Shown in pieces: positions 16,747 to 50,663 of a stretch of 64,000 bases of DNA. Origin of the DNA: Solirubrobacteraceae bacterium (GTDB taxonomy: Bacteria > Actinomycetota > Thermoleophilia > Solirubrobacterales > Solirubrobacteraceae); assembly GCA_030690545.1 (NCBI GenBank), contig JAUYGN010000032.1, positions 1 through 64,000 on the forward strand. Reading direction: 5' to 3'. The translations under genes and the position numbers were made by a program. How positions within the stretch are numbered: the first letter of the stretch is position 1; each line of letters begins with the position of its first letter. Below the pieces are notes generated by a model, which was not told the origin of the DNA, searched no databases, and worked only from the letters and a program-made list of their open reading frames with translations.

Positions 16747-16762
16747 GCCGCCGCCCGGGTAC

Positions 16763-25996: not shown

Positions 25997-26569
25997 TCAG
26001 TCGACCTCCACCCGATCCACGAGCCAGCGGCCGCCGCGGCGCACGAGCACCAGCTCAAGCGGATAGCGCGCCACGCCGCCGTCGGCGATCTCGGCGACGA
26101 CCAGCTCGCGCCCCGGGTCGAGACGTTGCGCCGACAAGTCGGTCACCCGCGGGCGTCGCTGTCGCGTCGCCGGGGAGACCCGTGGCCTGTTGCGCGCGAG
26201 GCGCCGCGCGAGCGCGGGGGTTGCCGCGCGGATCGCGCCGGCTCGACCGTGACCGTAGAGGTAGGCGAGGTAGCCGTCGAGGAAGCGCCGCGCCGTCCGC
26301 TCGACCCGCTCAGCGGCGATGCCCTCCGGTGGTGGGGCACCCTCCGCGCCGGCGCTCGGCTCCCGGCGAGCGGGGGTGTCGTTTGGGGCGGTTGCGATCG
26401 GCGGTGCGCTTGCCGCGGGCGCCCGTATCTCGCCGTTTCGGTCGGCGGGGCGCACGGCCAGCAGGCCGACCGCGGCGATCAGCACGACCGCGGCAGCCAG
26501 CGCGAAGGCGCGGCGGCGCTCGTGCGCCTCGATCGGCCGCTCGGCCAGCGCCCGCAACCGCCCGATCAC
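25997..26569 (-). CDS. conjugal transfer accessory membrane protein (VirB8/TcpC-like)
   Basis: one TM, then ERTARRFLDGYLAYLYG...ATPALARRLARNRPRVSPATRQRRP.. domain. Confidence 0.5.
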   Translation of the reverse strand: MIGRLRALAERPIEAHERRRAFALAAAVVLIAAVGLLAVRPADRNGEIRAPAASAPPIATAPNDTPARREPSAGAEGAPPPEGIAAERVERTARRFLDGYLAYLYGHGRAGAIRAATPALARRLARNRPRVSPATRQRRPRVTDLSAQRLDPGRELVVAEIADGGVARYPLELVLVRRGGRWLVDRVEVD

Positions 26570-28797: not shown

Positions 28798-31226
28798 CGA
28801 TCCTCCCGAACGGGGGTGGTGTCGAACGCTTGCAGCAGGTCGGCGGGCAGGTCGAACTGGACCTCGCCGACGCGGCCGTCGAGGTCGCGCATCAAGCAGC
28901 GCCCCTTGCGGAACTCGCGCAGCGCGACCAGCCGCGAGCGATCGTCGGGATCGGTGCCCAGCAGCTCCAAGGCCCGCCTGCTCTCGGCGTCGGACTCCTG
29001 GCCGAAGATGAAGTAGGTCCCGACCAGCTCGGACAGATCGCCGAGATCGGCCAAGCGTTGCGTCGCCAACAACACGGTCGCGTTGAACGCCCGCGCCAGG
29101 CGCACCAGCCGATTGATCACCGTCCGGCCCTGCGCCGAGGCGAGCAAGAACCACGCCTCATCGAGCAGCACGAGCTTGTGCTGCGAGCGATCCCCCGATA
29201 CAAGGCGCAGCGCGAGCGCGGCGACCAACGACAGCGTCGCGACCGAGACGCGCTCGCTGCGCGTGTAGGTCTCGCGCGCGGCGCGCGGGTCGGGTAGCAC
29301 CAGACCTGGGGTGCGGATCGTCGTCACCGGCGCCGCCGCCTCGGCCAGCCCGGACGCGCTTCCGTCGCCGAAGCCGAGCCGCGCGAGCCCGAAGTCGGCG
29401 ACGACCTCAAGCGCCTCGGCCGCCTCGACCGCCGCGCCGCCACCCGCGTCGCGGAGCTGGTCGATCACCGCCAGCGAGCTGCGCCCGCCGCGGCGGATGA
29501 CCTCGCGCACCGCGCGGCCGATCGCGACCTCCCACGACGGCGGCGGCTCGCGCAGCAACTCCAACAGGTAGGACGCGCACAGCTCCTCGCGCAGGTCAGA
29601 CAGCCCGATCGCCAACGGGTCCAGCGCCCCGCGGTGCTCCTCGGCGCCCGACAGCTCCAGCGCCCGCACCCGCCCCTGAAGCCCCGGCGCCTGCTCGAAG
29701 CCGTGATCGGGCTTCGGATCGAAGTCCACGATCCGGCTGCCGCGCCGCTCGGCCGCATACGCGATCGCCTCTGCGGCGACGGTCTTTCCGCTTCCGAGCG
29801 TCCCGGCGAGGAGCACCGCGGAGGTCCGGGCCTCGCGCGACGGCGCGGTCGCGTCATAGCGCACCGGCCGCGGGCGCCCGCCTGGCGTGTAGCCGATGTA
29901 GATGCCGCGCAGCGCTCCGACCTGGCGGGTCGCGATGGGCATGAGCGCGCCGAACTGCTCGACCGTCAACTGCTGGACGTAGTCGGTGGTGGCGCCGCCA
30001 TCGGGGCGCGGCAGGTGGTCGTAGAAGAGCTGTTCCTGCAACCCGCGCGGCCGGTGCAGCGCGAGGTCGCCGTAGGCGTCGCCCAAGGCCAGCATCCGCC
30101 GCTCCAACTCCTCCGTTTCGGCGGCACCTACGGCGAGGGAGAGCCAGCCGTAGAGCATCGGCGGCCGCGCGCCGGAGCCGAGGATCGCCTCGTACTCGCG
30201 CGCGAGCACGCGGTCCTCCTCGGCCAGCCAGCCCGGACCCTGTACCGAGCCCTCGGCCTGCTCGCGGAAGGCGTCCTCGACATCGAGGATGCGCCGCCGC
30301 ACCTGCGCCAGCGCCTCGCGGTTGCCCAGCCAGCGACAGTGCAGGCAGGCGTCGACCGGGAACTCGACCGCCTCCAACGGCGCGAACATCAACTCGGCCT
30401 GCGGGCCGGGGAACTCCGCCTCCTCGGCTAGCGCGCCAAGCACGCAGAACGCCTGCTGCGAGGTACCCTCCTCGGCCTCGACGCTCAACCCAGGCGGCCG
30501 CGATGGGTCCTCGCGCACCGGCGCGTTGACCAGCCGCCGCAGATCATGCTCCAGCGGCTCGTAGGCCACCTGTCCATCCGGGGCCTCGACGACCAGCGCA
30601 TCGGGGCGCCAGTGCGGGTCCGATTGCGGCTCGCCGATTCCGCGCACGGGGGCGCGGCGCAGCAGCCACTCAAGCTCGCGGGTCTCGGCGCGGCGCAGCG
30701 AGACGACGCCGAGCAGCCGCTCGAACAGCCGCTGCTCGGCCGTCGCCAGCGCCTCCAGCTCGGCGCCCGAGATCGGGCGGGCGGCGGCGACGCCGAGCAG
30801 GTCCTCGAGGCGGCGTCGGCCGCGATCGGCCTGGCGCACGAACGAGCCCCCAAACGTCGTGCTGCGGCGCTCGGCCAGTGAGACCGCGAGATAGACCTCC
30901 GGCACATGCGAGGCCAGCCCGCGCAGCCGCTCGGCGTGCTCGGCGAGATAGCCGCGCCACGCCTCGCGGTCTTGGCCGCGCTCGTCCAGCAGCCCGTCCA
31001 GCTCGGTCTCGTAGCGCTCTGCCGGGTAGGCGCGCTGCACCCGCCACAGCGAGAAGTCCGCGCCGACCACGTAGGCCAGCCGCTCCAACCGGCGCTGCCA
31101 AAGCCACTTGTCGGCGACCGGCAGGTGCGGATATGAGACCAGCGAGAGCCGGTAGAGCGCCGCGGCCTCGCCGCCGCGACCGAGGAGCATGTTGCCGCGC
31201 GCGTAGCGCAACGGGAACCCGGTCAC
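28794..31226 (-). CDS. VirB4-like T4SS ATPase
   Basis: AVLLAGTLGSGKTVAAEAIAYAAERRGSRIVDFDPKPDH; KLVLLDEAWFLLASAQGRTVINRLVRLARAFNATVLLATQRLADLGDL. Confidence 0.88.
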   Translation of the reverse strand: MTGFPLRYARGNMLLGRGGEAAALYRLSLVSYPHLPVADKWLWQRRLERLAYVVGADFSLWRVQRAYPAERYETELDGLLDERGQDREAWRGYLAEHAERLRGLASHVPEVYLAVSLAERRSTTFGGSFVRQADRGRRRLEDLLGVAAARPISGAELEALATAEQRLFERLLGVVSLRRAETRELEWLLRRAPVRGIGEPQSDPHWRPDALVVEAPDGQVAYEPLEHDLRRLVNAPVREDPSRPPGLSVEAEEGTSQQAFCVLGALAEEAEFPGPQAELMFAPLEAVEFPVDACLHCRWLGNREALAQVRRRILDVEDAFREQAEGSVQGPGWLAEEDRVLAREYEAILGSGARPPMLYGWLSLAVGAAETEELERRMLALGDAYGDLALHRPRGLQEQLFYDHLPRPDGGATTDYVQQLTVEQFGALMPIATRQVGALRGIYIGYTPGGRPRPVRYDATAPSREARTSAVLLAGTLGSGKTVAAEAIAYAAERRGSRIVDFDPKPDHGFEQAPGLQGRVRALELSGAEEHRGALDPLAIGLSDLREELCASYLLELLREPPPSWEVAIGRAVREVIRRGGRSSLAVIDQLRDAGGGAAVEAAEALEVVADFGLARLGFGDGSASGLAEAAAPVTTIRTPGLVLPDPRAARETYTRSERVSVATLSLVAALALRLVSGDRSQHKLVLLDEAWFLLASAQGRTVINRLVRLARAFNATVLLATQRLADLGDLSELVGTYFIFGQESDAESRRALELLGTDPDDRSRLVALREFRKGRCLMRDLDGRVGEVQFDLPADLLQAFDTTPVREDR

Positions 31227-34845: not shown

Positions 34846-35291
34846 TCGACGACGGGCTCGTGCTACGCGACGTGCCGACGGTGCGTGACGACGACGATGT
34901 CGGGCACGCGACGCAAGTACTTCTGAGGAGCGGGCTTCCGGCGCTGCCGGTGGTCGATGGGCAGGATCGCCTCGTCGGGATCTTCGGGGAGCGCGAGTGC
35001 ATCACGGCGATCTTCCCCGGCTACCTGGACCAGCTCACGCATCTCGGCTTCGTACCCCGAACGCTCGACGTCGTCCTGGAGCGCGACCGGAGCAGCCGCG
35101 ATGCGCCGGTCGCCGAGTGCATGAACAAAGAGCATGTCGATGTCAGCCCGGCGTTCTCTGCCCTCCAGATCGCCGAGACGTTTCTCCACCACCGCGTGTC
35201 GATCGTGCCGGTCGTCGACCGGGAGCGGATCCAGGGCATTGTCACCCGGAAGGACTTCTTCCAAGCCGCGGCGGGCCGGTTCCTTGGCTGA
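34842..35291 (+). CDS. tandem CBS-domain protein
   Basis: HATQVLLRSGLPALPVVDGQDRLVGIFGERECI ... ETFLHHRVSIVPVVDRERIQGIVTRKDFF. Confidence 0.88.
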   Translation: MIDDGLVLRDVPTVRDDDDVGHATQVLLRSGLPALPVVDGQDRLVGIFGERECITAIFPGYLDQLTHLGFVPRTLDVVLERDRSSRDAPVAECMNKEHVDVSPAFSALQIAETFLHHRVSIVPVVDRERIQGIVTRKDFFQAAAGRFLG

Positions 35292-36516
35292 GACCACCGC
35301 CCGGCGGCTCGTCCGTCGGCGCCTGGGCGCGGCGGCCGAGTTCGTGCGCGACGAGACGGTCGGTGGGGCGATCCTGCTGGCGGCGGCCGTCGTGGCACTG
35401 ATCTGGGCGAACTTGGGCGGTAGCTACGAGTCGGTGTGGTCGACCGAGTTGACGTTGGGGGTGGGGTCGCTGTCGCTGACCGAGGATCTGCGTCACTGGG
35501 TCAACGACGGGTTGATGGTGCTGTTCTTCTTCGTCGTCGCGTTGGAGGTTAAGCGCGAGTTGGTTGTCGGCGAGCTGGCCGACCGGCGGGCGGCGGCTGT
35601 GCCGGTGCTCGGCGCGTTCGGCGGGGTGGCCTTGCCAGCGGCAATCTTTCTGGCGGTCACGCTCGCTTTTGGCGATTCGGGTGCGACCGACGGCTGGGCG
35701 ATCCCGGCTGCGACGGACATCGCGTTCGCGGTCGGGGTGCTGGCGCTGCTGAGCCGTTGGGTGCCGCCGATGCTGAAGTTGTTGCTGTTGACGGTCGCGG
35801 TGGTCGACGACATCGTCGCGATCGCGATCATCGCTGTCTTCTACAGCTCGGGTGTTTCACCGGCCTGGATTGGCGCGGTCGCGGTCGGGCTGGCGACGAT
35901 CGTCGGGATGCGCGTTGCGGGCGTGCGGCCGATCGCCGCATACGTCCCGATCGGGATCGCGATCTGGGTGGCGATGCTGGAGTCCGGCGTCCACGCCACG
36001 ATCGCCGGGGTGACGGTGGGGCTGCTGACTCCGGCGCGTCCGGTGGCCGGCCGTCCGGTGATCGAGCTGCTCGAGGATCGCATTCATCCGTTCACGGTCG
36101 GCTTGGTCGTGCCGCTGTTCGCGCTCGCCAACGCGGGCATTGCGATCGACGGCGACGTGCTCGCCGACGCGGCCTCCAGCCCGATAGCTTGGGGCATCGT
36201 CGCTGGATTGGCGGTCGGCAAGCTCGCTGGCATCGCCGGCACGATGCTGCTGCTGGTGCGTTTGCGGATTGGCAGGCTCCCCGACACGATCCGAGCTACG
36301 CACGTCTGGGGAATGGCCGCCGTGGCCGGGATCGGCTTCACCGTCTCGCTGTTCATCACTCAGCTCGCCTACGAGGACCCGGCAGTGGTCGACGCTGCCA
36401 AGCTAGGAGTCTTCGCCGGCTCGATCACCAGCGCAGCGATCGGAGCGATGATCCTCATGCGGAGCGGCAGGGTCGTGCCTGGCTCGACCACGCCGCCAGG
36501 GGGCAGAGAGCGGTGA
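35284..36516 (+). CDS. nhaA: Na+/H+ antiporter NhaA
   Basis: WVNDGLMVLFFFVVALEVKRELVVGELADRR; AIPAATDIAFAVGVLALL; LLTVAVVDDIVAI; TTG start inferred, overlapping the CBS gene. Confidence 0.92.
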   Translation: MAETTARRLVRRRLGAAAEFVRDETVGGAILLAAAVVALIWANLGGSYESVWSTELTLGVGSLSLTEDLRHWVNDGLMVLFFFVVALEVKRELVVGELADRRAAAVPVLGAFGGVALPAAIFLAVTLAFGDSGATDGWAIPAATDIAFAVGVLALLSRWVPPMLKLLLLTVAVVDDIVAIAIIAVFYSSGVSPAWIGAVAVGLATIVGMRVAGVRPIAAYVPIGIAIWVAMLESGVHATIAGVTVGLLTPARPVAGRPVIELLEDRIHPFTVGLVVPLFALANAGIAIDGDVLADAASSPIAWGIVAGLAVGKLAGIAGTMLLLVRLRIGRLPDTIRATHVWGMAAVAGIGFTVSLFITQLAYEDPAVVDAAKLGVFAGSITSAAIGAMILMRSGRVVPGSTTPPGGRER

Positions 36517-37859
36517 GGGCAATAGTGATTGGTGCCGGCGAGGTCGGCGTGAACGTCGCGCGTACGCTCAGCGTCGACGGCCACGACGTTACGGTCGTGG
36601 ACACCGACCCCGTCCGCTGCGCCGCGGTTCAGGGTGAGTTGGACGTGCTCGTCGTGGAGGGCAACGGCGGCAGTCCGCGCGTGCTGGCAGAGGTCGAGGC
36701 CGGCTCGGTCGATCTGCTCGCCGCGACGACCGATAGCGACGAGGCGAACGTGATCGCCGCGCTCGGGGCGCGTCAGCTCGGGACGCGCACGACGGTCGCG
36801 CGGGTTCGTGACCCTGATTTCTTTGGTCCTGACGAGTCGTTCGCGCGTGACGTGCTGGGCATCGACTTCGTGATCGACCCGGACAGGGCGACCGCCAGGG
36901 ACGTCGCCGACGCGCTGGGGCTGCCGGGTGCGGTGTCGGTCGAGTACTTCGGCGACGGTCGCCTGGCGCTGGCTGAGGTCATCGTCACCGACTCTTCGCC
37001 ATTGCTGGGGATCGAGTTGGCCCAGCGCGAGCGGCCCTATCCGGCGTTCGTGGTCGGGCTCTCCCGCCGTGGCAAGGCGAGTCTGACCCGCCCGGAGGTC
37101 GTGCCCGAGCTGGGCGACCACCTGCTGGTCGCGGTCTCGACCGAGCATGTGCGGCCGGCAGTCGCGCATTTCGCCGGCAGGACTCGGGAGGTGCGTGAGT
37201 GCGTGGTCTTCGGCGGCGGGCGGATCGGCTTCCAGCTAGCCAAGCTGTTGGAGCGCACGCGGGTGCGGGTGACGATGCTTGAGCGCGACGAGATCCGTGC
37301 TCGATTCCTGGCCGAGAAGCTGCCCCGCGTGACCGTGTTGCACGACGAGGGCGTCAGCTCCGGGGCGTTGGCGGCCGCCAACGTCGCCGAGGCGGACGCG
37401 TTCGTCGCCTGCGCCGGGGACGACCGGGCGAACCTGCTTGCGGCGCTCAACGCCAAGCGGCTCGGGGCCGATCTCAGCATGTCGATCGTCTCGCGTGAGG
37501 AGTTCACGCCGCTGGTCGACGCGCTCGCGATCGACGCGTCGTTTTCGCCGCGCCTGATCGCCGCCGAGGCGATCTTGCGCTTCGTGCACACCAAGACGGT
37601 GCGCGCGATCCATCTGCTGCGCAGCGGGTTCGAGGTGATCGAGCTGGAGGCCGAGGAGGGAGCGCGGATCGTCGGCAAGGGGCTCGGCGACACCCACGGC
37701 ATGCTGCGCGGCTGTCGAGTCGGGGCGATCCTGCGCGGTACTGAGGCGATGATCCCCGAGCGGGGCATGGAGGTGCTCCCCGGCGATCGGGTCCTGATGC
37801 TCGGCGTTGCGGGTGCGCTGTCGGGCGTCGAGCCGTTCTTCACCTGCGACGGCCGATGA
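36513..37859 (+). CDS. trkA: Trk system potassium transporter TrkA (two RCK domains)
   Basis: VRAIVIGAGEVGVNVARTLSVDGHDVTVVDTDP ... CVVFGGGRIGFQLAKLLERTRVRVTMLERDEIRARFLAE. Confidence 0.92.
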   Translation: MRAIVIGAGEVGVNVARTLSVDGHDVTVVDTDPVRCAAVQGELDVLVVEGNGGSPRVLAEVEAGSVDLLAATTDSDEANVIAALGARQLGTRTTVARVRDPDFFGPDESFARDVLGIDFVIDPDRATARDVADALGLPGAVSVEYFGDGRLALAEVIVTDSSPLLGIELAQRERPYPAFVVGLSRRGKASLTRPEVVPELGDHLLVAVSTEHVRPAVAHFAGRTREVRECVVFGGGRIGFQLAKLLERTRVRVTMLERDEIRARFLAEKLPRVTVLHDEGVSSGALAAANVAEADAFVACAGDDRANLLAALNAKRLGADLSMSIVSREEFTPLVDALAIDASFSPRLIAAEAILRFVHTKTVRAIHLLRSGFEVIELEAEEGARIVGKGLGDTHGMLRGCRVGAILRGTEAMIPERGMEVLPGDRVLMLGVAGALSGVEPFFTCDGR

Positions 37860-39322
37860 GCGCGAGGAGACGGCTTCCGATCGGGCCTAATACGGCTTTG
37901 GTTCTGCTGACGCTCGGGGGCACGTTCGCGGTGTGCGCGCTTGGGCTCGCCGCCTGCGCGGTGGTCGGGCTGTTCGACGGTCGCGCGGCGGGCGCCTTCG
38001 CGCTCTGCGCGGCGGGCTCGCTGGCGTTGTCGGCGGTCTGCCTGCGACCGGCCCGCAGGACCGCGCGTGGGCTTGCGGTCCGCCCACTGGGCGGGCTGCT
38101 CGCGGTCACTCTCGCCTGGTCGGGCGCGAGCGTCGTCGGAGCCGTTGCACTGCTGGCGGCTGGCACGTTCGGATCGCCGCTGGACGCCCTGTTCGAGGCG
38201 ACGAGCGGCTTCACCACGACGGGCGCGACGCTGCTGTATCCGATCGAGGGCCAGCCCGACGCGGTGCTGCTGTGGCGCAGCGTCATGCAGTGGCTGGGCG
38301 GCGTCGGCATCGTAGTCGTCGTAGTCGCGATCGCTCCGGTCAGCGGCCCCGCTGTCCAGCGTGCCTTCTACGCCGAGACCAGCGGGATCACGACCGAGCG
38401 CCTGACGCCGCGGATCATCGACACCGCCAAGATCATCGGCGGCATCTACCTCGTCCTCTCGGCGGCCGCTGTGATCGCCTACCTGGCCGCGGGGATGGGC
38501 GGCTTCGACGCCTTCAACCACGCGATGACGAGCGTCTCCACCGCGGGCTTCTCGACCCGCGATGCGTCGATCGGCGGCTTCGACTCGCTGCCGATCGAGC
38601 TCGTCGCGATTGCGTTCATGATTTTCGGCGGCATCAACTTCGGCTTCTACTGGCGAGCGGTTCGCGGCAAGCCGACGATGCCCCAGGGCGCCGAGGTGCT
38701 CGCCTTCCTCGGCATTCTCGCGGGGGCGATCGCCGCGATCGCGGTCAGCGTCGAGCTGGCCGGCGACGCGTCGCTGCGCGAGGCCGCTTTCAACGTCACC
38801 AGCATCGTGACCACGACGGGCTACGCCAGCGCCGACTTCAGCGCGTGGAACGACTTCTCCCGCGTTGCGCTGCTGGTCCTGTTTTCCTCCGGGGCGTGCG
38901 CCGCCTCGACGGCGGGCGGGATCAAGGTGATCCGCAGTGTGCTGCTGCTCAAGGCCGCGCGCCAGGAGATCGACCGGCCGCTGAACCCGCTGGTTGTCAG
39001 GGTGTTGCGCTTCGGCGGACACGCCTACAGCGAGGACGTACGCCGCGCGGTGCTCGGCTACTTCCTGGTCTACGCGATCGTCATCGTCGCCGGCACGCTC
39101 GCGATGGCCACTACCGGCGTCGACCCGATCACCGCGATCAGCGCCGCGTCCTCGGCGCTGAACCTGATCGGCCCCGGCCTCGGCACGATCGGCCCCGACA
39201 CCACCTGGCAGGCGTTGCCTGACTTCGGCCGCGCTGTGGCGATTCTTCTGATGATCACCGGCCGCCTTGAGGTCTTCACCATCGTCGCCCTACTCGCCGC
39301 GATCTTCCGCTTCCGGCGCTGA
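37856..39322 (+). CDS. trkH: Trk potassium uptake membrane subunit TrkH
   Basis: EATSGFTTTGATLL ... RSVMQWLGGVGIVVVVVAI ... NLIGPGLGTIGP. Confidence 0.92.
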   Translation: MSARRRLPIGPNTALVLLTLGGTFAVCALGLAACAVVGLFDGRAAGAFALCAAGSLALSAVCLRPARRTARGLAVRPLGGLLAVTLAWSGASVVGAVALLAAGTFGSPLDALFEATSGFTTTGATLLYPIEGQPDAVLLWRSVMQWLGGVGIVVVVVAIAPVSGPAVQRAFYAETSGITTERLTPRIIDTAKIIGGIYLVLSAAAVIAYLAAGMGGFDAFNHAMTSVSTAGFSTRDASIGGFDSLPIELVAIAFMIFGGINFGFYWRAVRGKPTMPQGAEVLAFLGILAGAIAAIAVSVELAGDASLREAAFNVTSIVTTTGYASADFSAWNDFSRVALLVLFSSGACAASTAGGIKVIRSVLLLKAARQEIDRPLNPLVVRVLRFGGHAYSEDVRRAVLGYFLVYAIVIVAGTLAMATTGVDPITAISAASSALNLIGPGLGTIGPDTTWQALPDFGRAVAILLMITGRLEVFTIVALLAAIFRFRR

Positions 39323-39509
39323 TTCGAGGTCCACGATTCGACCGCAAACCACCTGTCCGGCCAGAAGCGCGTTGCCCATCTCTGGTGAGCACCGAGCCAA
39401 CCGGATCGTTCGCCGCCCGGGACCGGAGATGGGTGGCTGTGCCGCGCTCATCGAGGCCACGACGGACACGACCGACCCCACGATGAGCACCAACTAAGGG
39501 GACAGTTCG

Positions 39510-39863
39510 GTGTCGGGGCCCTGGGAGATAACGCGAGACGCTGCAGAGGCGATTGCCGAGCGCCTGCGGGTTCTTGGACAGCCTGTTCGCGCGCGTCTCA
39601 TTGCACAGCTTCACGCCACAAGCGAGATGAGTGTAGGAGCACTGGCTGACGCAATTGGTGAGAGCCGATACAACACGTCTCGGCATCTCGCCGTGTTGCG
39701 CGCCGCCGGGATCGTTGGTCGCCGCCACAAAGGCCGTGTCGTCTACTACAGGCTCGTGGATCTGAGCGTCGTGAACATCTACCGGGACATCGCTGACGGG
39801 CTGGCTAAGCACGCGGAACGACTCGAAGATGCGGTTCGAGGTCACGGTGATCTATCGGCATGA
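39510..39863 (+). CDS. ArsR-family HTH regulator
   Basis: AIAERLRVLGQPVRARLIAQLHATSEMSVGALADAIGESRYNTSRHLAVLRAAGIVGRR. Confidence 0.85.
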   Translation: MSGPWEITRDAAEAIAERLRVLGQPVRARLIAQLHATSEMSVGALADAIGESRYNTSRHLAVLRAAGIVGRRHKGRVVYYRLVDLSVVNIYRDIADGLAKHAERLEDAVRGHGDLSA

Positions 39864-39962
39864 GCATGTCTAACGCCACGCGGGAATGCTCCTGCTGCGT
39901 AAGGGATCAGTAGCGACGAAATACCTTCAGGAACGTGCACGGCGAAGTTCGGTTCACTCAAA

Positions 39963-40376
39963 TCAGGAGCCTTGATCCCCGCTATCCCCGTCCAGATCGG
40001 CTGCGAGACGAGCGACGCGGGTCGCGATGTCGTCGCGGATAGTGCGGACTCGATCGGGAGGGAGTCCTTTGGGGTCTTCGAGGTTCCAGTCGATGTAGCG
40101 CTTGCCGGGGATGTAGGGGCACTCGTCGCCGCAGCCCATCGTCACCACAACATCCGCCCGCTCGGCCAGTTCGGTAGTCAGCCGCTGAGGCGTCCGGTTG
40201 GCGAGGTCGACGTCTAGCTCGCGCATGACCTCGACGACCTCGGGATGGACTCGTTTGCCCGGCGTCGTGCCCGCCGAGGCGGCGGTGTGGCGACCGGCGG
40301 CTGCCCGCTCGAACAGGGCTTGGCTCATCTGCGACCGGCCGGCGTTATGCAGGCAGACGAACAGGACGTGCGCCAT
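39963..40376 (-). CDS. arsC: arsenate reductase ArsC (LMW phosphatase family)
   Basis: VLFVCLHNAGRSQMSQALFERAA...VVTMGCGDECPYIPGKRYIDWNLEDP. Confidence 0.93.
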   Translation of the reverse strand: MAHVLFVCLHNAGRSQMSQALFERAAAGRHTAASAGTTPGKRVHPEVVEVMRELDVDLANRTPQRLTTELAERADVVVTMGCGDECPYIPGKRYIDWNLEDPKGLPPDRVRTIRDDIATRVARLAADLDGDSGDQGS

Positions 40377-41073
40377 CCTGGCCCTCCCCGGTCTTGACGG
40401 TGGTGGCGGGTGCGCCGCGGACAAGCTGGTAGGCGAGCGCGCCGAGGGTGGCGCCGAGGAACGGCGCGGTGAGGTAGAGCCAGAGGTCGGCCAGCTCCCA
40501 CGCGGCAAGCGCGGGCGCCAGCGATCGGGCGGGGTTCATCGACGCGCCGGTGACGGGTCCGCCGAACAGGGCGTCGAGGCCGACCGTGCCTCCGATCGCA
40601 ATGGCGGCGGCGGCGCCGACGGCGCGGGTGTCGGTGGCGACGGCCATGATCACGAACATCAGCAATGCGGTCAGCACGACCTCGTAGGCGAACGCGCTGC
40701 CTGCGCCGACGGTCGGGATCGTCGCTCCGAGCTGGCCGGGCTGGTCGGGCCAGACGGCGAGCAGCGCGAGCGCGGCGAGCAGCGCGCCGCCGGCTTGGGC
40801 GGCGATGTAGGCGGCGGCGTCGCGGGCGGGGAAGTGGCGGGTGAGCGTGAACGCGACCGTGACCGCCGGGTTGATGTGCGCTCCGGACAGGTGCCCGGTC
40901 GCGTAGACCATCGCCATCACGACCAGCCCGAACGTCAGCGCGACGCCGACCGTCCCGAGCACTCCGGCGTAGACGGTGTCGGCGACGATCGCGCCGCAGC
41001 CGGCGAACACCAACGCGAACGCCGCGAACGCCTCGGCCACAGCGCGGCGCGCGAGTGGGAGCGAGCCGTCCAT
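40345..41073 (-). CDS. MIP/aquaglyceroporin (AqpS-like)
   Basis: SGAHINPAVTVAFTL and GASMNPARSLAPAL dual NPA motifs; sits between two arsC genes. Confidence 0.92.
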   Translation of the reverse strand: MDGSLPLARRAVAEAFAAFALVFAGCGAIVADTVYAGVLGTVGVALTFGLVVMAMVYATGHLSGAHINPAVTVAFTLTRHFPARDAAAYIAAQAGGALLAALALLAVWPDQPGQLGATIPTVGAGSAFAYEVVLTALLMFVIMAVATDTRAVGAAAAIAIGGTVGLDALFGGPVTGASMNPARSLAPALAAWELADLWLYLTAPFLGATLGALAYQLVRGAPATTVKTGEGQDGARPVRLPA

Positions 41074-41690
41074 TAGCCGACGGCGAGCACGTCGCAGCGC
41101 TCAGCGCGCAGGCGGTCGCGGGTGCGACGAGCGGCAAGCGCCATCAGGAAGCTGCGAACCGGCGCGTCGTCGTACTCGGCCAGGATCGCGTCGGCGCAGG
41201 CTCGGATCTCGGCTGGTGGGCGCTGTCCCCCGAACTCCGCAACGAGGCTCGGGAGCAGACGTGCGAGGCGGATCTGGTGCGCGGTGCGGTCGCCTCGGAT
41301 CGCGTCGAGGCGACCGACGATCAGCGCCTGCACCCTTCTCTCGATCTCGTCGCGGACTTCGCGGACAACCTCTAGAGGCTGATCGGCGACGTCGGGGAGA
41401 TCCCAGTCCTCCACCTTCGTCGGAACGTAGGGGCAGGCGTCGCCGCAGCCCATCGTGATCGCCCAGTCGGCGTGGAGCTGCATCTCGATGGCCAGCTTCC
41501 GCGGCCGGCGGCCGGAGAGGTCGATGCCGACCTCGGCCATCGCCTCGATCACACTTGGCCACAGCGCCCGAGCAGGTGTCGAGCCGGCCGACTCCGCGCG
41601 CACATCGGCGGGCGCTTGGCGCTCGAAGAACGCTTGGGCCATCTGCGACCGACCCGCGTTGTGGTTGCAGACGAAGCACGTACTTCATGG
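41073..41690 (-). pseudogene. arsC: second arsenate reductase ArsC with C-terminal helical domain; frameshift near codon 5
   Basis: SD ggagggagg + ATG at 41690 reads MKYVLRLQPQRG..., while the CX5R loop FVCNHNAGRSQMAQAFFERQ is in another frame. Confidence 0.65.
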
Positions 41691-41785
41691 CGATCCTCCC
41701 TCCACGTCTCCGCGGGTCGCTTCGGCTGGCGGCGGGAGTGTCGATCGCGCGGTCTCCATCTCGCCCGGCATCTTATCCATTGACA

Positions 41786-41813
41786 GATGTAAGTTCAATA
41801 GATAGGTTCAAAT
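41786..41813. promoter_or_regulatory. candidate ArsR operator
   Basis: direct repeat agttcaatagat / ggttcaaatagat just upstream of arsR (41816), between divergent arsR and arsC. Confidence 0.45.
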
Positions 41814-41815
41814 AG

Positions 41816-42169
41816 ATGGCTGTCGATCTGGAACTTGCCCCGAAGACCAAGCGCCCCGCTGGCGAGCCTTGCTGCGAGCCGGTGGTCTACCCCGATGTCG
41901 AGCGTGAGCAGGCCGAGCGCATGGCCAAGATCGCCAAGGCGCTCGGCGACCCCGTCCGCCTCCAACTCGTTGACGTGCTGCGCAAGCACGCCGGGAAGGT
42001 CTGCGTCTGCGAGTTGGTGCCGCTGTTCGATCTCTCCCAGCCGACCGTCTCTCACCACCTCAAGGTGCTGCGCGCTGCTGGCATCGTCGGCTCCGAGCGC
42101 CAGGGCCTCTGGGCGTACTACTACGTGATCCCCGATGCGCTTGAGGAGTTGTCCGCATGGCTGAGTTAG
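41816..42169 (+). CDS. arsR: arsenic-responsive repressor ArsR
   Basis: KALGDPVRLQLVDVLRKHAGKVCVCELVPLFDLSQPTVSHHLKVLRAAGIVGSERQGLWAYYYV (As(III)-type CxC in helix). Confidence 0.92.
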   Translation: MAVDLELAPKTKRPAGEPCCEPVVYPDVEREQAERMAKIAKALGDPVRLQLVDVLRKHAGKVCVCELVPLFDLSQPTVSHHLKVLRAAGIVGSERQGLWAYYYVIPDALEELSAWLS

Positions 42170-43237: not shown

Positions 43238-43284
43238 CTCCGCAACCGATACCCGGTCGCGGGAAGGTGTTCAAACCCCGCCCC
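43238..43284. repeat. internal att-like repeat (copy 1)
   Basis: cctccgcaaccgatacccggtcgcgggaaggtgttcaaaccccgcccc; last 32 bp identical to 50480-50511. Confidence 0.85.
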
Positions 43285-43457
43285 TCGTCTGACATCTGCG
43301 ACCCGGGTCACGCGCGTTCGCGGCTGCACGCCCGCTTCGGGGGCCAGTTCAGCGGATTGGCCCGGACCGTATCGGAGCGTGCAGGCTGGCAGTCCAACCG
43401 GGAGACGGCCGGGCTGGAGCCCCGCGCGCCGACCGCCATGGCCGGTACCTTTGCGGG

Positions 43458-44432
43458 GTGGCCGGTCGTGAGCTGAAAGCGTTGTTTCGGGCCTATCGTG
43501 AGGGCGATGAGCTGGCGTTTCGGCGTGCCGCGCAGGAGATCGTCGAGGAGGAGGAGGCGAAGAATCACGTTGCGCTGGCGCGCGATCTGCGGGCGCTGTT
43601 GGCTGGTGGCGGCGCTCGGTCGGCGGTGGCGCCGGGGGTCACGTTGCCCGAGCCACCGAAGGATCGTGAGGGCGAGTGGCCGCTGGCGCAGGTCCGTCAC
43701 GCCGAGCGAGGGCTCGATGACCTCGTGCTTGACGGAGCGCTCGTCGAGCGGTTGCGCACGCTGGCCGAGGAGTACCGGCGGTGGGAGGAGATCGACCGTC
43801 GCGGGATTCCGCGGCGTCAGCGGATCCTGTTCCATGGCCCGCCGGGATGCGGCAAGACGAGCGCGGCGGAAGCGGTCGCGACCGAGGTCGGTCTGCCGCT
43901 GGTCGTCGTGCGAATCGACGCGGTCGTCTCCAGCTACCTCGGCGAGACGGCGTCGAATCTGCACCGGATCTTCGATTTCGTTGGGCAGGGCTCGTGGGTT
44001 CTGCTGTTCGACGAGTTCGATGCGTTGGGTAAGGCTCGCGATGACCCGACCGAGCATGGCGAGGTCAAGCGGGTTATCACGGCATTTCTGCAGATGCTCG
44101 ACGCGTTCCGCGGACCGAGCCTCCTGATCGCGGCGACCAACCACGAACACTTGCTGGATCCGGCGTTGTGGCGCCGCTTCGACGACGTGCTGGAGTTTCC
44201 ACGCGCGACGGTCCATCAGAGCCGCAAGCTCCTGCGGAGTCGCCTGCGCGCCGTCAAGCACCAGAGATTGGACATCGACGCGAGCGCGTCGCGGCTGAAG
44301 GGCAAACCACACGCCGCCGTCGAGAAGGTCGCATGGGACGCGATCCGCTTCGCCGTGCTCGCCGATCGCGACGTCGTTCAGCAGAGCGACCTTGATCGCG
44401 CCATCAATGACGCGCTCGCGCGCCCGTGGTAG
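43458..44432 (+). CDS. ietA: AAA+ ATPase, IetA-like
   Basis: ILFHGPPGCGKTSAAEAVATEVGLPLVVVRIDAVVSSYLGETASNLHRIFDF...VLLFDEFDALGKARDD; directly precedes an S8 protease. Confidence 0.75.
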   Translation: MAGRELKALFRAYREGDELAFRRAAQEIVEEEEAKNHVALARDLRALLAGGGARSAVAPGVTLPEPPKDREGEWPLAQVRHAERGLDDLVLDGALVERLRTLAEEYRRWEEIDRRGIPRRQRILFHGPPGCGKTSAAEAVATEVGLPLVVVRIDAVVSSYLGETASNLHRIFDFVGQGSWVLLFDEFDALGKARDDPTEHGEVKRVITAFLQMLDAFRGPSLLIAATNHEHLLDPALWRRFDDVLEFPRATVHQSRKLLRSRLRAVKHQRLDIDASASRLKGKPHAAVEKVAWDAIRFAVLADRDVVQQSDLDRAINDALARPW

Positions 44433-44435
44433 GGG

Positions 44436-46766
44436 ATGGCCGATCACCTGCAGTTGCCGCAGCCGATCCCGCTTGAGAGTCGTCGAGCGGGTACCGGCTT
44501 CGGCGAGCGCCCCAACCGCAACCCGGGACGCCACGGCAAGAAGCTCGACGAGGACCTCAGCCGGGCAATCACGGCGATGCGCCCGTCGCGCACGATCGAG
44601 GGCGTCGATCCTGCCTACGTGTTCAAGATCCGTGCGGTCGGGCCGCTTGCCGAGAGCGCGCTTCGCGGCAGCGATTTGCAGTGGCTGGGTGACACCAAGG
44701 ATTGGATGTACTTCGTCCTGGCTCCCGGTGACGACCCAACTGAGTTGCGCAAGAACCTCAGCAGCTACGGCGCCGCCGGCGATCAGGCCGACGAAGCGCC
44801 GGGCCGGTCGTTCTTCGACTCGATCGAGGAATTCTTGCCTTACGACCGCGAGGACCGGCGAGGCCCTGGGCTTCCCGCCGACGGCGATCCCCTCGGCGAA
44901 GCCATCGCGGTCGACGTGATCTTGTGGCCATCGGCCAGCGTCCAGGCCGCGCGAGCGCGCGTCGCGGAGGTCCGTGCTGTCCTCGACCAGAGCGACGCGT
45001 CGGCGGTCCTTACGGCCGACGAACGCGCACGGTTCACCGTCGTCCGCGCCCGTGTCGACCGCGACACGCTCGACGACCTGCTCGACCTCGCCGTCGTGGA
45101 GCGCATCCGTCTCCCACCGACGCCGCGGCTGGAGCCGTCGACGTGGCGCAACGTGACGATTGACGAGCTTCCGACCCCGCGCGTCCAGCAGGTGGCGCCG
45201 ATCGGTCTCATCGACGACGACGTCATGGAGCATCCGCTGCTGCCCGCCGATGTCCTCGCTTCGCGAAGCGCGATTCCAGCAGCGCACGCATGGCTGGCAC
45301 CTAGCGACCACGGAACGATGGTCGCCGGCCTTTGCGCCTACGGAGACGTTGAGGATCCGCTCGCCGGTGCGTCAGACTGGCTCGCGTACGGGCCGATCCA
45401 CGCCGTTCGCGTGCTCGAGCCGGATCCACAGGACCAGCGACGCACGCGCTTCCCGACCGACGAGCCGGCCTACCGGGTCATCGAGTCGGCGATCCGCCAG
45501 CTCCATGACACCCACGGGGTACGCGTCTTCAATCTCTCGATCACCGATGACGTCGCCTACTCCGGGCCGCACGTCAGCGTTTGGAGCGAACGCCTCGACG
45601 AACTCGCCCATGAACTGGACATCGTGATCGTTGTCGCGGCCGGCAACCAACGCCCCGACGACCTCCCACCGCAGACCGACGTCCACGGCGCCTACCCCGG
45701 CTATCTGCTCAACGACGCCGCGCGCATCGCTGAGCCGGCCGTGGCCGCCAACGTCGTCACGGTCGGCAGCATCGCGCACGCCGACGCGCCGCAGACGTTC
45801 GACGGCACCTCTCGCCCCGGCGACCGTGCCATCGCGAAGCCGCGGCATCCATCGCCCTTTACCCGGACCGGGCCGGGCACCGCAGATGCGATCAAGCCCG
45901 ACCTGGTCGAGCGCGGCGGCAATTGGGTGCTCGACGACACCGACCGTCTCCGCGACCCCGACTACGGCGTCAGCATCATCTCGCTCGTCCGCCGCGACCA
46001 GCGCTTCTTCGGCGTCGCCAACGGCACGAGCTTCGCCGCTCCGCGCGTCACGCGGCTCGCCGCCGCGATCCTGCACCGCTACCCCGACGCCAGCGCCAAC
46101 CTCATCCGAGCGCTGCTCGGGATCGCCTCAGTTCCCGTCAACGGCCCGACATCGCTCGACGCGAAAGATCTCCGCCGGATCGCAGGGCACGGACAGCCCC
46201 TCGTTGCGCGCGCCCTCGACAGTCAAGGTCCACGAGTCGCGATGACCTACGAAGGGACGATCTCCGCCAACACGGTCGTCATCCACCCCGTGACGATCCC
46301 CGAGGAGTTCGCCCGCGGAGGATCCTGGCGCACAATCACCGTCGCGCTGGCCTACGACCCGGCGGTGCGTCGAACGCGACGGGAATACCTCGCCGGACGT
46401 ATGAGCTTCGACCTCGTCCGCAACATGTCCATCGAGGACATCAAGGCGACCTGGATCAAGCAACCAGACGACAAGGCGCTCCGGCTCGACCTTCCGAAGG
46501 ATGCGCGCCGACCGAAGCTTGAGCCCGGCGCCCAGGACAGCCAAGACAGCACCCTCCAGGTCCGGACCCTCCGCCGTCGCCGCCTTGACCCCGACGACGG
46601 TGACACCTACTACGTTGTCGTTCGCCACACCTCGTCGGCATGGACTGAAGGCGGCGAGCAGCGCTACGCGCTGGTCGTCGCCCTTGAAGACGAGGAGCGC
46701 GTCGATCTCGACCTGTACGCGACGCTCGCCGCCCGACTGCCAGTGCGCGTCCGGCTTCGGTCCTAA
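44436..46766 (+). CDS. ietS: S8 subtilisin-like peptidase, IetS-like
   Basis: VAPIGLIDDDVMEHPLL ... DHGTMVAGLCAYGD ... NGTSFAAPRVTRLAAAI (D/H/S triad regions). Confidence 0.78.
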   Translation: MADHLQLPQPIPLESRRAGTGFGERPNRNPGRHGKKLDEDLSRAITAMRPSRTIEGVDPAYVFKIRAVGPLAESALRGSDLQWLGDTKDWMYFVLAPGDDPTELRKNLSSYGAAGDQADEAPGRSFFDSIEEFLPYDREDRRGPGLPADGDPLGEAIAVDVILWPSASVQAARARVAEVRAVLDQSDASAVLTADERARFTVVRARVDRDTLDDLLDLAVVERIRLPPTPRLEPSTWRNVTIDELPTPRVQQVAPIGLIDDDVMEHPLLPADVLASRSAIPAAHAWLAPSDHGTMVAGLCAYGDVEDPLAGASDWLAYGPIHAVRVLEPDPQDQRRTRFPTDEPAYRVIESAIRQLHDTHGVRVFNLSITDDVAYSGPHVSVWSERLDELAHELDIVIVVAAGNQRPDDLPPQTDVHGAYPGYLLNDAARIAEPAVAANVVTVGSIAHADAPQTFDGTSRPGDRAIAKPRHPSPFTRTGPGTADAIKPDLVERGGNWVLDDTDRLRDPDYGVSIISLVRRDQRFFGVANGTSFAAPRVTRLAAAILHRYPDASANLIRALLGIASVPVNGPTSLDAKDLRRIAGHGQPLVARALDSQGPRVAMTYEGTISANTVVIHPVTIPEEFARGGSWRTITVALAYDPAVRRTRREYLAGRMSFDLVRNMSIEDIKATWIKQPDDKALRLDLPKDARRPKLEPGAQDSQDSTLQVRTLRRRRLDPDDGDTYYVVVRHTSSAWTEGGEQRYALVVALEDEERVDLDLYATLAARLPVRVRLRS

Positions 46767-46783
46767 CGCGAGGCAAGGGAGAA

Positions 46784-47734
46784 TTGACAGTCAGCGCGTT
46801 CGCGTCGTCGCCTCTGCCGCAGGTAACGTTGGTGGCGTCGATGCCTGCCGCTGATATGCCGGAGACGCTCTTTGCCGACCTCGCGCGCGGCGACGCTTCG
46901 GAGGCCCGGAGGGGGGAGCCGATATGGGAGTTCCTCGATCGTGTCGACGATCCCGTGTTCGATCGTGTCCGCCGTCTGTTGAACCACTGGGTGGCTTTGG
47001 CGCGCCACCAATGGTCGCCCGAAAAGGTTCCCGAGCGCCATCGGGGTGCCTACGCGCAATTGTTCGACATGGCGCGCAAGCGCAGAGTCATTCTGCCTAT
47101 CTCAGCCGCGCATCTCGTCGAGACCGCCCGCTCGGATGGTCGCTGGTGGCGCGATCTCGCCACGATCATGCTGCAGCTTTCACGCGGATGGCAGATGCGC
47201 AGTCCGCTCAAGGTGCGCCACCACGAGCTTGCTGCCGCGATGGCTGGCGACCGCCCCGTCGACGGTCCGCCCGTCTTCACGTTGGAGCCCGGAGTCCTCT
47301 TCGCATCTGACAGGCCCGCCGCTGAACGCGGGGAAGTACCAGAGTCGGTCGCGCCTGGCTTGCGCGATGTGCACGGCCGGCTGATGTGGGTATCGGCGTT
47401 GGCGGAGGTTCTCATGGAGGACGAGATTGAGGACGATCCCCATGCCAGCGCGAAGGTCGAGCGATGGCGATCTGCCTACGAGCGACTCGCGTCCCATATG
47501 GCCAACGCCAACCTTCCTAGGCAGCACATCCGTCTCAACGCACTTGCGAGCCTTCTCGCGGACTTGACTGATGACCTCGCCTGGGCCGCCACGACGGTTG
47601 GGCTCTCGACGGGGTGCTTCGAGGGATGGATCGCCAACGCCAACGAGCACATCGCGCGGATGCCGTATCTCGGCCGCCTTCAGGAGGTCATGCACCGGCG
47701 GCTGCGTAACCCGCAAGTTGCAGTGTCTGGCTGA
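46784..47734 (+). CDS. unknown protein, possible third component of the IetAS operon
   Basis: 316-aa ORF 17 nt after the ietS stop, same strand; RRVILPISAAHLVETARSDGRWWRDLATIMLQLSRGWQMRSPLKVRHHELAAAM is vaguely PIN-like. Confidence 0.65.
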   Translation: MTVSAFASSPLPQVTLVASMPAADMPETLFADLARGDASEARRGEPIWEFLDRVDDPVFDRVRRLLNHWVALARHQWSPEKVPERHRGAYAQLFDMARKRRVILPISAAHLVETARSDGRWWRDLATIMLQLSRGWQMRSPLKVRHHELAAAMAGDRPVDGPPVFTLEPGVLFASDRPAAERGEVPESVAPGLRDVHGRLMWVSALAEVLMEDEIEDDPHASAKVERWRSAYERLASHMANANLPRQHIRLNALASLLADLTDDLAWAATTVGLSTGCFEGWIANANEHIARMPYLGRLQEVMHRRLRNPQVAVSG

Positions 47735-48035
47735 CGGTCGCGGGCGGTTGGAAATCACGCCGTGACACCAGGATTCGGTCTTTCTGTGCTTGAGCGGCGT
47801 CACGGCTATTTCCCCATCAGAGCGATGGTGTTCGAACGACCCCAATGACATGCACTTCCTTTCCTGCGCCGCGGGATACGCCGACGTCATAGTTGGCGAG
47901 AAGCACATTTCGAACCACATCCGCAGCGCGGGCAGGAACGTGTCCTCGGGAGCGCTCGTCTGCTCCTCGCCCGATGAAGCCGTCAACCATCTGGTCATCG
48001 TGCTCGCGTAAACCTCGCGTCCGGGTAGGCCTGTC

Positions 48036-49976
48036 TCAATTGTCCGCCTGGGACGGCGTAACGTGATTGCGAATTGCGCGGAGAAGGTCTGTGACGAATG
48101 GCGGCGGCGTGTCGGCGAGCTGGACAGCTCTCCGATACACCTCATCTGCCTTGGCGCTGATCCCCAACTCGGACGCTACACGGTTGCGGGCGACCCCCAG
48201 GCTCGGCCAGATCTCGTCGAGGTCGTTCTCGAGCCGGTCGCGAAAGTTCGCGCAGGTCGGCCGGATCTCTCGATCGGGCCAATCTGTTGGAGTCTCCCCG
48301 TTGAGCGCGAGCAGCTGGCGGTTCTTGGCCTTGACCGCCTCTACTTGCGCTGTTCGCTGAGCTTCAGTGAGTCTCTCCTTCCGCCGAAGTCGGTCGCCAA
48401 CGCCCGCGTCGCCGTCGAAGACGACGAAGGTTGGGATATCAAGCTGCCGGAGGATCGAGAAAGCGAGTGGGATGACGGTCTTGCCCCAGCTCGCGACGAC
48501 AGCGATGCCGTCGCGATCGAGCCCGCCGCTGAGGCGGGCTGCCGCGCCGATTAGGGCTGCGTCGGATGTGCCCTCGCATAGCACGACGCCACGGGCGAAG
48601 ATCGCTTCGGCTAGCGTCGATGACAACGTCATACGCGCTGCCGCATCGATCTCCGCCGTGATGTCCACGCCCTTCAATGTCTCGCTGACCTTCGCGATAT
48701 CGGCTGCAACACCCTCAGTCGCCCCGTCCTGGCCGCGGCGAAATACCCGGATATCCTCGAAAACGGCGGGCTTGACAAAATGCGGCGAATGCGTCGTATA
48801 GACGACCTGTACTGAGCGTGTTGACGCGTTCTCTGAAGCGGTCGCAAGCGCCGCGAGTGTGTCCGCCAGGCTGCGTGCCTGGAGCGGATGCTGGTACAGC
48901 TCGGGCTCTTCGATGCCCAGCATGAGCGTCGCCGGGGCCGACTCGCCACTGGACGACTCGCTGTCAGCGTGGTCGGTTTCGTTGACGCGATCGGCAATCT
49001 CATGGAGAAGCCCGATGACGAGTGCACGCTGGATGCCGTGGCCCTGACGAGCTACGTCAGTCGCGTGTCCGACCTGATCTTGGACCGTAACATCGACGGA
49101 CAATGCTGGGGGACGAGGAGGCAAGACCTCGGGCGTCAGCTGGACTGCGACGCCCGGGATGTAGTGCTGGACGCGTTCCGTGATGGCTTGGGCGAGGTCG
49201 CTGAGCTTCTCCGCTTGCGCCGATGTCACAAGGTCCTGGATCTTCTCGGTCGCCTGCGATTGGAGGTCCGCAACTTGCTGCGCGGTCTCTGTGTCAAGTT
49301 CGCCGATCGTCGTCAGTAGCCGACCGAGTGCTGACGCCTTGCCCGTGTCGAGAGCTACACCAGCGTCGTCCGACGCGCCGATGAGAACAAGATCGAAGCG
49401 ATCCACAAGCCGCGGCTCGCCCGCAATGCCGAACAGGTGACGCGCATCCTCGGATCGAACTACGCACTGCTCCGGGTGCTCGCGCTCCCGTTGCTCCATT
49501 GCAGCATCTGCCTCGGCAACCCTTCTCGGAGCAGGCCCATCGCACCCGACACGCTCGCCGTGCTCTTCGACGTAGGCCGCAAATCGCTGGCGTCGATCGA
49601 TTCCACCCGATGCCGCCCTGATCTCGTCGAACTCGGGGAAGACCAGCGCGGAGCCTGACAGCTTGTCGGTCTCGCCCGGGCGCCACGTGCGGGTGAACGT
49701 CGTTGAGCTGCCGACTGCGTACTTTCCGAGTCGTTGACGGTCGGCCTCGTTGATGCCGTCGAAGACCACCGCGACGGATACCAGTGCGCTGGTGTTGGCA
49801 CCTTCCCAGAGGTCACGCTCGTCCAAGGGGCCTCCCCGAAAGAACCACTCGAGCGCACGCAGGAACGATGACTTCCCGACTCCGCCACTGCCGACGATTG
49901 CCGTGAGGGAGCCGATGTCGACGGTAAGATCGGCGATGCACCGGAAGTTCTGTACTCGAACCTGGGAGATCCGCAT
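48036..49976 (-). CDS. OLD-family ATP-dependent endonuclease (AAA ATPase + TOPRIM)
   Basis: VQNFRCIADLTVDIGSLTAIVGSGGVGKSSFLRALEWFFRG; MLGIEEPELYQHPLQARSLA; VVYTTHSPHFV; VLCEGTSDAALIGAAARLSG..FVVFDGDAG. Confidence 0.88.
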   Translation of the reverse strand: MRISQVRVQNFRCIADLTVDIGSLTAIVGSGGVGKSSFLRALEWFFRGGPLDERDLWEGANTSALVSVAVVFDGINEADRQRLGKYAVGSSTTFTRTWRPGETDKLSGSALVFPEFDEIRAASGGIDRRQRFAAYVEEHGERVGCDGPAPRRVAEADAAMEQREREHPEQCVVRSEDARHLFGIAGEPRLVDRFDLVLIGASDDAGVALDTGKASALGRLLTTIGELDTETAQQVADLQSQATEKIQDLVTSAQAEKLSDLAQAITERVQHYIPGVAVQLTPEVLPPRPPALSVDVTVQDQVGHATDVARQGHGIQRALVIGLLHEIADRVNETDHADSESSSGESAPATLMLGIEEPELYQHPLQARSLADTLAALATASENASTRSVQVVYTTHSPHFVKPAVFEDIRVFRRGQDGATEGVAADIAKVSETLKGVDITAEIDAAARMTLSSTLAEAIFARGVVLCEGTSDAALIGAAARLSGGLDRDGIAVVASWGKTVIPLAFSILRQLDIPTFVVFDGDAGVGDRLRRKERLTEAQRTAQVEAVKAKNRQLLALNGETPTDWPDREIRPTCANFRDRLENDLDEIWPSLGVARNRVASELGISAKADEVYRRAVQLADTPPPFVTDLLRAIRNHVTPSQADN

Positions 49977-50283
49977 GGCCGATGTCTACTCGATCGTTCG
50001 GCGGGCGATCGCCGATCGTCAGCAGATCATCGCAACCTACGGCGGACACCGTCGCGAGATGTGCCCGCACGCGATCGGCACCAAGAACGGCCGACCTCAA
50101 GCACTCTTCTTCCAGTTCGGAGGATCGACCAGCACCAGTCTCCCTCCAGGCGGGGAGTGGCGGTGCCTCCCGCTCGCCGGGTTGAGCGAGGTCGTTGCGG
50201 TCGACGGCGACTGGCACAGCGGCTCGTCGCACTCCCAGCCGAACACGTGCATCGACGAGCTTGATCTCGAGGTCGATTACTGA
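49975..50283 (+). CDS. small conserved protein (WYL-like suspected), divergent from the OLD gene
   Basis: MADVYSIVRRAIADRQQIIATYGGHRREMCPHAIGTKNGRPQALFFQFGG...PPGGEWRCLPLAGLSEV; SD ggag upstream. Confidence 0.65.
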   Translation: MADVYSIVRRAIADRQQIIATYGGHRREMCPHAIGTKNGRPQALFFQFGGSTSTSLPPGGEWRCLPLAGLSEVVAVDGDWHSGSSHSQPNTCIDELDLEVDY

Positions 50284-50460
50284 CGCGAGACGCGCTGGCC
50301 ATGGTGTCGACGCCTCACCAGTGCGCGAGCACCCTGTGCGGATGGTGGACGCCTGGGTGATCCTAGGGTATGGGAGGCGAAGGCGACAATCCTAGTGGCT
50401 CGGAAAGCTGCTACCAGGGTAGGCGAACATTGACCGAGCGGGCTTCTGCGGTAGCTCGAC

Positions 50461-50516
50461 CACCTCCACGAACCGATAGCCGGTCGCGGGAAGGTGTTCA
50501 AACCCCGCCCCCGCCA
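50461..50516. other. putative attR of island A
   Basis: carries the 43.25-kb repeat arm followed by the tRNA-Tyr-like 3' end ttcaaaccccgcccccgcca. Confidence 0.75.
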
Positions 50517-50663
50517 CTCGCAGGCGCCCGCGGAGGTGGAAGCCGATGGGCCGCCAGCGTGGATCGATGTTCGACACCTGCGGCGACGCTGTCGAGGCTT
50601 GCTGGCGCCCCGCCGCGCCAGCTGACAGGATCGGGGCGTTCCCCGAGCCGAAGGAAGTCGTCC

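What the first reader, a model, noticed from the sequence alone, without database searches (positions are those of the whole stretch)
43238..50516. Defence cassette bracketed by two copies of the island's att arm: possible cis-mobilisable sub-element
ccggtcgcgggaaggtgttcaaaccccgcccc occurs identically at 43253-43284 and 50480-50511, with further imperfect upstream match (cctcc..aaccgata.cc). Only the defence genes (IetAS-like, 316-aa ORF, OLD, small partner) lie in the 7.2 kb between. Read on the minus strand, the 43.25-kb copy also encodes AGFEHLPATGYR... followed by its own tail and stop (RLRRRGFCRSGEAKGRLV*). This suggests two accreted elements sharing attP half-sites, the right one lacking a recombinase.
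Basis: partly seen in the sequence, partly recalled or inferred. Interest (0 to 1): 0.7.

Follow-up and report, generated by a model that had tools for sequence, protein, structure and literature searches.

The report
Internal att scar in tRNA-Tyr island
A mobile island driven by a serine recombinase has inserted into the cell's only tyrosine tRNA gene, and a defence-gene block at its far end lies between two copies of the recombinase's attachment arm; one copy is the island's true end and the other is an internal junction of a kind also found, around similar toxin and defence cassettes, in Conexibacter.

Summary
The repeat is real: 32/32 bases at 43253-43284 and 50480-50511 (41 bp at 98%), only two copies in the genome, none expected by chance. 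It is half of an attachment site. A large serine recombinase (LSR, 19387→17.6 kb) inserted a 32.9-kb conjugative island into the 3' end of the genome's only detected tRNA-Tyr; six congeners show the empty site. The 50.5-kb copy is attR: P arm plus the displaced native tRNA end. The P arm also encodes the LSR's C-terminal tail in the excised form. The family normally inserts into tRNA-Met, so this insertion is off-target. The 43.25-kb copy joins the same P arm to a non-tRNA half-site. In Conexibacter, tandem islands are divided by the same P arms into recombinase-less toxin-antitoxin/defence cassettes. At one junction type the right half carries the recognition motif 13 bp from the core, as in attB halves, not 18-19 as in attP halves; the 43.25-kb copy is a degenerate example (14 bp). 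'Cis-mobilisable' is not: both copies are attR-like, so no 7.2-kb circle is expected, and a 25.7-kb excision would break the tRNA. The 32.9-kb unit is what should move. New variant of a known kind.

The parts
17517..17598 (+). tRNA-Tyr (GTA), only full-length copy found; attL = native tRNA (B half) + core GCCC at 17589-17592 + element-supplied 3' end CCGCTA (P')
   Evidence: congeners end CCGCCAC instead
17593..17620 (.). P' half-site, GCGACC motif 18 bp from the core
17591..19387 (-). large serine recombinase (599 aa to the core; the integrated ORF runs on antisense through tRNA-Tyr to 16655, 910 aa)
19589..20020 (-). XF1762-family protein next to the LSR; a similar region lies next to the LSR in both Conexibacter islands
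20065..20955 (-). Replic_Relax (replication-relaxation) protein
26566..28758 (-). TrbL/VirB6-like T4SS protein
28794..31226 (-). VirB4/TcpF-like conjugation ATPase
35284..42169 (.). cargo: NhaA antiporter, TrkA, TrkH, aquaporin, LMW phosphatase (ArsC-like), ArsR
43244..43284 (+). internal copy of the P arm (core GCCC 43280-43283); the encoded LSR tail on the minus strand (to stop at 43192) departs from the conserved YRFV(A/E)V tail after ATGYR
43284..43303 (+). right half at the internal junction: degenerate B'-type (A-type) half-site, GCGACC 14 bp from the core
   Evidence: rank 4 of 3324 scored positions
43458..44432 (+). IetA-like AAA ATPase
44436..46766 (+). IetS-like subtilisin protease
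46784..47734 (+). 316-aa protein, no family match
48036..49976 (-). OLD-family ATPase/TOPRIM nuclease
49975..50283 (+). small ORF (about 102 aa) divergent from OLD
   Evidence: no family match
50471..50511 (+). P arm of attR (core GCCC 50507-50510), GCGACC motif 19 bp from the core
50392..50511 (-). C-terminal LSR tail as read in the excised 32.9-kb circle: AGFEHLPATGYRFVEVVEL...SFPSH*
50511..50517 (+). displaced native tRNA-Tyr 3' end (CCGCCAC) = B' of attR
   Evidence: same bases end tRNA-Tyr in the congeners

Best explanation
The two repeats are copies of one arm (P) of the attachment site of the island's large serine recombinase. The LSR inserted a 32.9-kb conjugative island (17.59-50.51 kb) into the 3' end of tRNA-Tyr, an off-target site for a family that normally uses tRNA-Met. 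The left end (attL) rebuilt the tRNA with an element-supplied end; the right end (attR, 50.5 kb) is the P arm plus the displaced native tRNA end. The P arm also encodes the last residues of the LSR, so the protein's tail changes on insertion. The 43.25-kb copy is an internal P-B'-like junction left when an LSR element inserted beside a recombinase-less defence cassette that began with an attB-type half-site and ended with a P arm; the whole then moved as one unit. Shown by sequence: the ends, the empty sites, the identity of the arm, the recurrence in Conexibacter. Inferred: the order of events, capture at a B' half-site, and that only the 32.9-kb unit excises usefully today.
For: Six same-genus genomes have tRNA-Tyr followed by tRNA-Thr at 0.7-1.3 kb with no island; their tRNA ends in CCCCCGCCA(C) (CTCCCGCCAC in one), and the CCGCCAC sits at 50.5 kb in the window while its tRNA carries CCCCCGCTA. 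LSR relatives in other genera and a remnant in the own genome lie at tRNA-Met(CAT), whose end is CCCCCGCTA. The junction at G116r 29336 reads an LSR remnant in frame into the P arm, and P-arm copies encode a conserved tail AGFEHHPATGYRFVAVREL. The GCGACC motif lies 18-19 bp from the core in P/P' halves and 13 bp in the tRNA-Met B half and in A-type halves, 14 bp at 43.25; a 5-bp shift between attB and attP halves is the published rule (PMC3783163). Conexibacter islands carry 4 P-arm junctions each, with LSR C-terminal remnants and TA/defence cassettes between.
Against: The 43.25 right half matches the A-type motif only in its outer part (score 3 against 13-28 for the members; three other places in the window score higher), and its spacing is one base off. 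No excised circle or reads were examined. No recombination directionality factor was identified. The cassette has not been found alone elsewhere; IetAS relatives in other genomes share only 43439-46772 and lack the repeats.
Confidence: 0.72

Rival explanations
1. Simple tandem accretion of two LSR elements at the tRNA: the right one (43.3-50.5) was a complete element with its own LSR, later deleted, and 43.25 is P2-core-P1' (attP-like).
For: Such P-P' junctions followed by LSR C-terminal remnants exist in G116 (G116r 23839 and 29336). In G027 an LSR remnant lies about 90 bp right of an A-type junction.
Against: At 43.25 the right half does not restore a tRNA end, has no LSR remnant (tblastn found only the LSR at 17.6-19.4 kb in the window), and its motif lies 14 bp from the core rather than 18.
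Confidence: 0.2
2. The cassette is a true cis-mobilisable element that the LSR excises alone as a 7.2-kb circle.
For: Direct repeats of an LSR half-site flank it; recombinase-less cassettes flanked by the same arms recur in Conexibacter.
Against: Both sites are P-B' (attR-like); attR x attR in direct orientation is not a productive pair (PMC3783163).
Confidence: 0.08
3. The 43.25 copy is a duplication by homologous or replicative recombination with no relation to LSR recombination.
For: Only about 41 bp is shared, with little similarity further upstream.
Against: The shared segment ends at the LSR core, exactly as at other P junctions in Conexibacter; the right half ranks 4th of 3324 positions for the A-type half-site.
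Confidence: 0.07

Closest known systems
Dehalococcoides ssrA genomic islands (DsiB serine integrase; PMC3146451)
   Same: CcrB-like LSR, insertion at the 3' end of an RNA gene, tandem islands separated by short direct repeats, several islands without an integration module (proposed there as cis-mobilisable), an ssrA direct repeat embedded in dsiB in a related fosmid.
   Different: Target is tRNA-Met/tRNA-Tyr, not tmRNA; the repeated unit is a P arm joined to different right halves; conjugation genes on board; cargo is TA/defence rather than dehalogenases.
Composite SCC elements of staphylococci (Ccr recombinases, rlmH)
   Same: LSR islands in tandem at one site, with recombinase-less parts bounded by att repeats (from own knowledge); weak match of the LSR to CcrB/CcrC models.
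   Different: LSR far below the Ccr cut-off (36.6 of 900 bits); different target and host; no ccrA/ccrB pair seen.
CIMEs and ICE accretion in streptococci (from own knowledge; reviewed in PMC5704250)
   Same: Recombinase-less block next to a conjugative element sharing att sequences.
   Different: Those accrete by tyrosine-integrase cores that are alike at every site; here an LSR with distinct P and B halves restricts which pairs can recombine.

Membership tests
LSR-driven integrative and conjugative element | Resolvase + Recombinase + zinc-ribbon integrase on board | tested here: met
LSR-driven integrative and conjugative element | Defined attL/attR with an empty site in relatives | tested here: met
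LSR-driven integrative and conjugative element | Conjugation genes (VirB4, VirB6, relaxase) | tested here: inconclusive
   VirB4/TcpF, TrbL and Replic_Relax found; no coupling protein recognised
LSR-driven integrative and conjugative element | Excises and transfers | not testable with these tools
   needs experiment
Cis-mobilisable element (CIME) | Bounded by att sites, no recombinase | tested here: met
Cis-mobilisable element (CIME) | The two bounding sites can recombine with each other | tested here: not met
   by site polarity: both are P-B' (rule from PMC3783163); not tested at the bench
SCC (Ccr) element | Ccr recombinase above the model cut-off | tested here: not met
   36.6 bits against 900
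IetAS defence system | Adjacent IetA ATPase and IetS protease matching PADLOC models | tested here: met

The most novel reading that the evidence does not exclude
A serine-recombinase gene-cassette system: recombinase-less TA/defence cassettes carry an attB-type half-site (GTAGATGGACCTGCGA) at one end and the P arm at the other. Beside a tRNA-derived B half the first forms an attB landing site; an LSR element that lands there becomes linked to the cassette and can later carry it off by using the cassette's outer P arm. The 43.25-kb junction would be a degenerate example.
Probability: 0.3. Interest if true: 0.75.

Novelty: new variant of a known kind. Interest (0 to 1): 0.5.

Why it matters
It shows how defence genes can be joined to a conjugative island without a recombinase of their own, and gives a readable rule (which half-sites meet at each junction) for telling cassettes that can still move from locked scars. 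It is also a clear case of a serine integrase family aimed at tRNA genes, which the 2014 Islander paper stated was not known (PMC4383910), with an off-target insertion into a second tRNA and a recombinase whose tail changes on insertion.

Tried and rejected
Dispersed genomic repeat: rejected, two copies only. tRNA-Thr at 51.2 kb as the target: rejected, intact and syntenic in congeners. The P arm as a host-gene 3' end: rejected, the conserved tail is in frame with the LSR at a P-P' junction. X_A (the A-type half) as a conserved host sequence: rejected, 7 exact hits in 146 family genomes, control 0; single-mismatch hits across the class look like background. LSR relatives and P arms in viral contigs: none. 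One literature search failed on term length.

Full report
OBSERVATION.

THE ISLAND. On the minus strand from 19387 lies a large serine recombinase (Resolvase, Recombinase and zinc-ribbon domains). Its frame is open through the antisense of tRNA-Tyr (17517-17598) to 16655. Six same-genus genomes have tRNA-Tyr and tRNA-Thr 0.7-1.3 kb apart, against 33.6 kb in the window. Their tRNA-Tyr ends ...TTCGAATCCTGCCCCCGCCA(C) (one has CTCCCGCCAC); the window's ends ...TTCGAATCCTGCCCCCGCTA, and the missing CCGCCAC lies directly after the repeat at 50.5 kb. So 17.59-50.51 kb is an island, the 50.5 copy is attR, and the repeat is the element's P arm. The crossover lies in the shared GCCCCCGC. Only one full-length tRNA-Tyr was found in the genome.

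TARGET. Relatives of the LSR in other genomes of the family (67-78% identity in the closest), and a broken copy in the own genome (89-91% over its pieces), lie at tRNA-Met(CAT). tRNA-Met ends CCCCCGCTA, which is what the window's element brought to tRNA-Tyr; in the own genome the sequence after tRNA-Met is nearly the same P'. The insertion at tRNA-Tyr is therefore best read as off-target use of a similar T-arm.

THE ARM IS ALSO CODING. At tRNA-Met most LSR relatives end ...AGFEPATFGL*, the stop falling in the antisense anticodon loop. Across a P' to P junction the LSR would instead end ...AGFEHHPATGYRFVAVREL..*; one junction in G116 shows an LSR remnant reading through in this way, and the tail is conserved among P-arm copies, with differences most frequent at third codon positions (24/65/89 for positions 1/2/3). 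The 50.5 copy keeps this tail (YRFVEVVEL); the 43.25 copy departs from it after ATGYR through an indel. The LSR's natural partner arm is therefore the 50.5 copy.

THE 43.25 COPY. Its right half, CTCGTCTGACATCTGCGACC, is neither tRNA end nor P'. P-arm junctions in Conexibacter explain it. Junctions are of two main types. B-type: P followed by the tRNA-Met end and P'; two in G116 are followed by LSR C-terminal remnants. A-type: P followed by a conserved ~15-bp half, GTAGATGGACCTGCGA. In G116 they alternate A, B, A, B; in G027 the order is A, A, B and one unclassified.

POLARITY. The GCGACC motif lies 18 bp from the core in all five P' halves, 19 in the four P halves tested, 13 in the tRNA-Met B half and in the A-type halves where the motif is recognisable (in one, G116c, the best match falls elsewhere), and 14 at 43.25. 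Serine integrase attB halves carry the zinc-domain motif 5 bp nearer the centre than attP halves (PMC3783163). A-type halves are thus B'-like, and in G020 one sits beside a tRNA-Met-like B half, making a near-palindromic attB-like site at a contig end. The 43.25 half is a degenerate match: rank 4 of 3324 scored positions in the window, about one in a thousand for a place named beforehand.

CASSETTES. The segments between junctions in Conexibacter hold VapC-like PIN toxins, a TacA/GNAT pair, a kinase resembling PD-T4-6/Mads6, ApeA and a weak IIG-like protein, with no LSR beyond remnants. The window's segment holds IetAS, a 316-aa protein and OLD. IetAS relatives in G001, G026 and G038 share only 43439-46772.

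MECHANISM. Shown: ends, arm, off-target tRNA, recurrence. Inferred: an LSR element inserted at an attB formed with the cassette's B'-like half, leaving P-B' at 43.25; the linked unit later used the cassette's outer P arm for attP and entered tRNA-Tyr. Recombination of 43.25 with 50.5 is an attR x attR pair and is not expected to excise the cassette (PMC3783163); attL with 43.25 would leave tRNA-Tyr without its acceptor end.

NOVELTY. Tandem LSR islands with recombinase-less parts are known (Dehalococcoides ssrA islands, PMC3146451; composite SCC). New here, as far as the searches reached: tRNA-Met as the family's site (the 2014 Islander paper knew of no serine integrase targeting tRNA genes, PMC4383910), the off-target tRNA-Tyr insertion, the LSR tail carried by the P arm, and a conserved B'-type half at cassette ends. 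The literature search was limited to an open-access library.

Noticed in passing
G000 contig C144:18761-19258 (locus L080 about 8530-9353): Broken sister LSR (89-91% identical pieces, frameshifted) at tRNA-Met in the same genome; no second P arm was found for it.
   Followed up: partly
window 16655-19387: In the integrated state the LSR frame is open through antisense tRNA-Tyr into host DNA (910 aa).
   Followed up: partly
window 19589-20020: XF1762-family protein next to the LSR; tblastx shows a conserved region at the same place in the G116 and G027 islands (99% between those two). Candidate partner or directionality factor.
   Followed up: no
G116 C1 4734039, 4758941 and 890988 (L112, L086, L113): P-arm junctions far from tRNA-Met, with no LSR homologue in the stretches examined: two A-type or A-like, one unclassified.
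   Followed up: partly
G020 C15:87924-87944 (L087 1501): Truncated tRNA-Met-like 3' half joined to the A-type half-site, a near-palindromic attB-like site 87 bp from the contig end, next to a tRNA-Leu.
   Followed up: partly
L165 10550-13264 (G038): IetAS relative with stops and frame breaks, a decaying copy.
   Followed up: no
L033, L034, L035, L037: tRNA-Tyr to tRNA-Thr interval is 3-10 kb in G014, G034, G035 and G021 against 0.7-1.3 kb in the genus; possible insertion hotspot.
   Followed up: no
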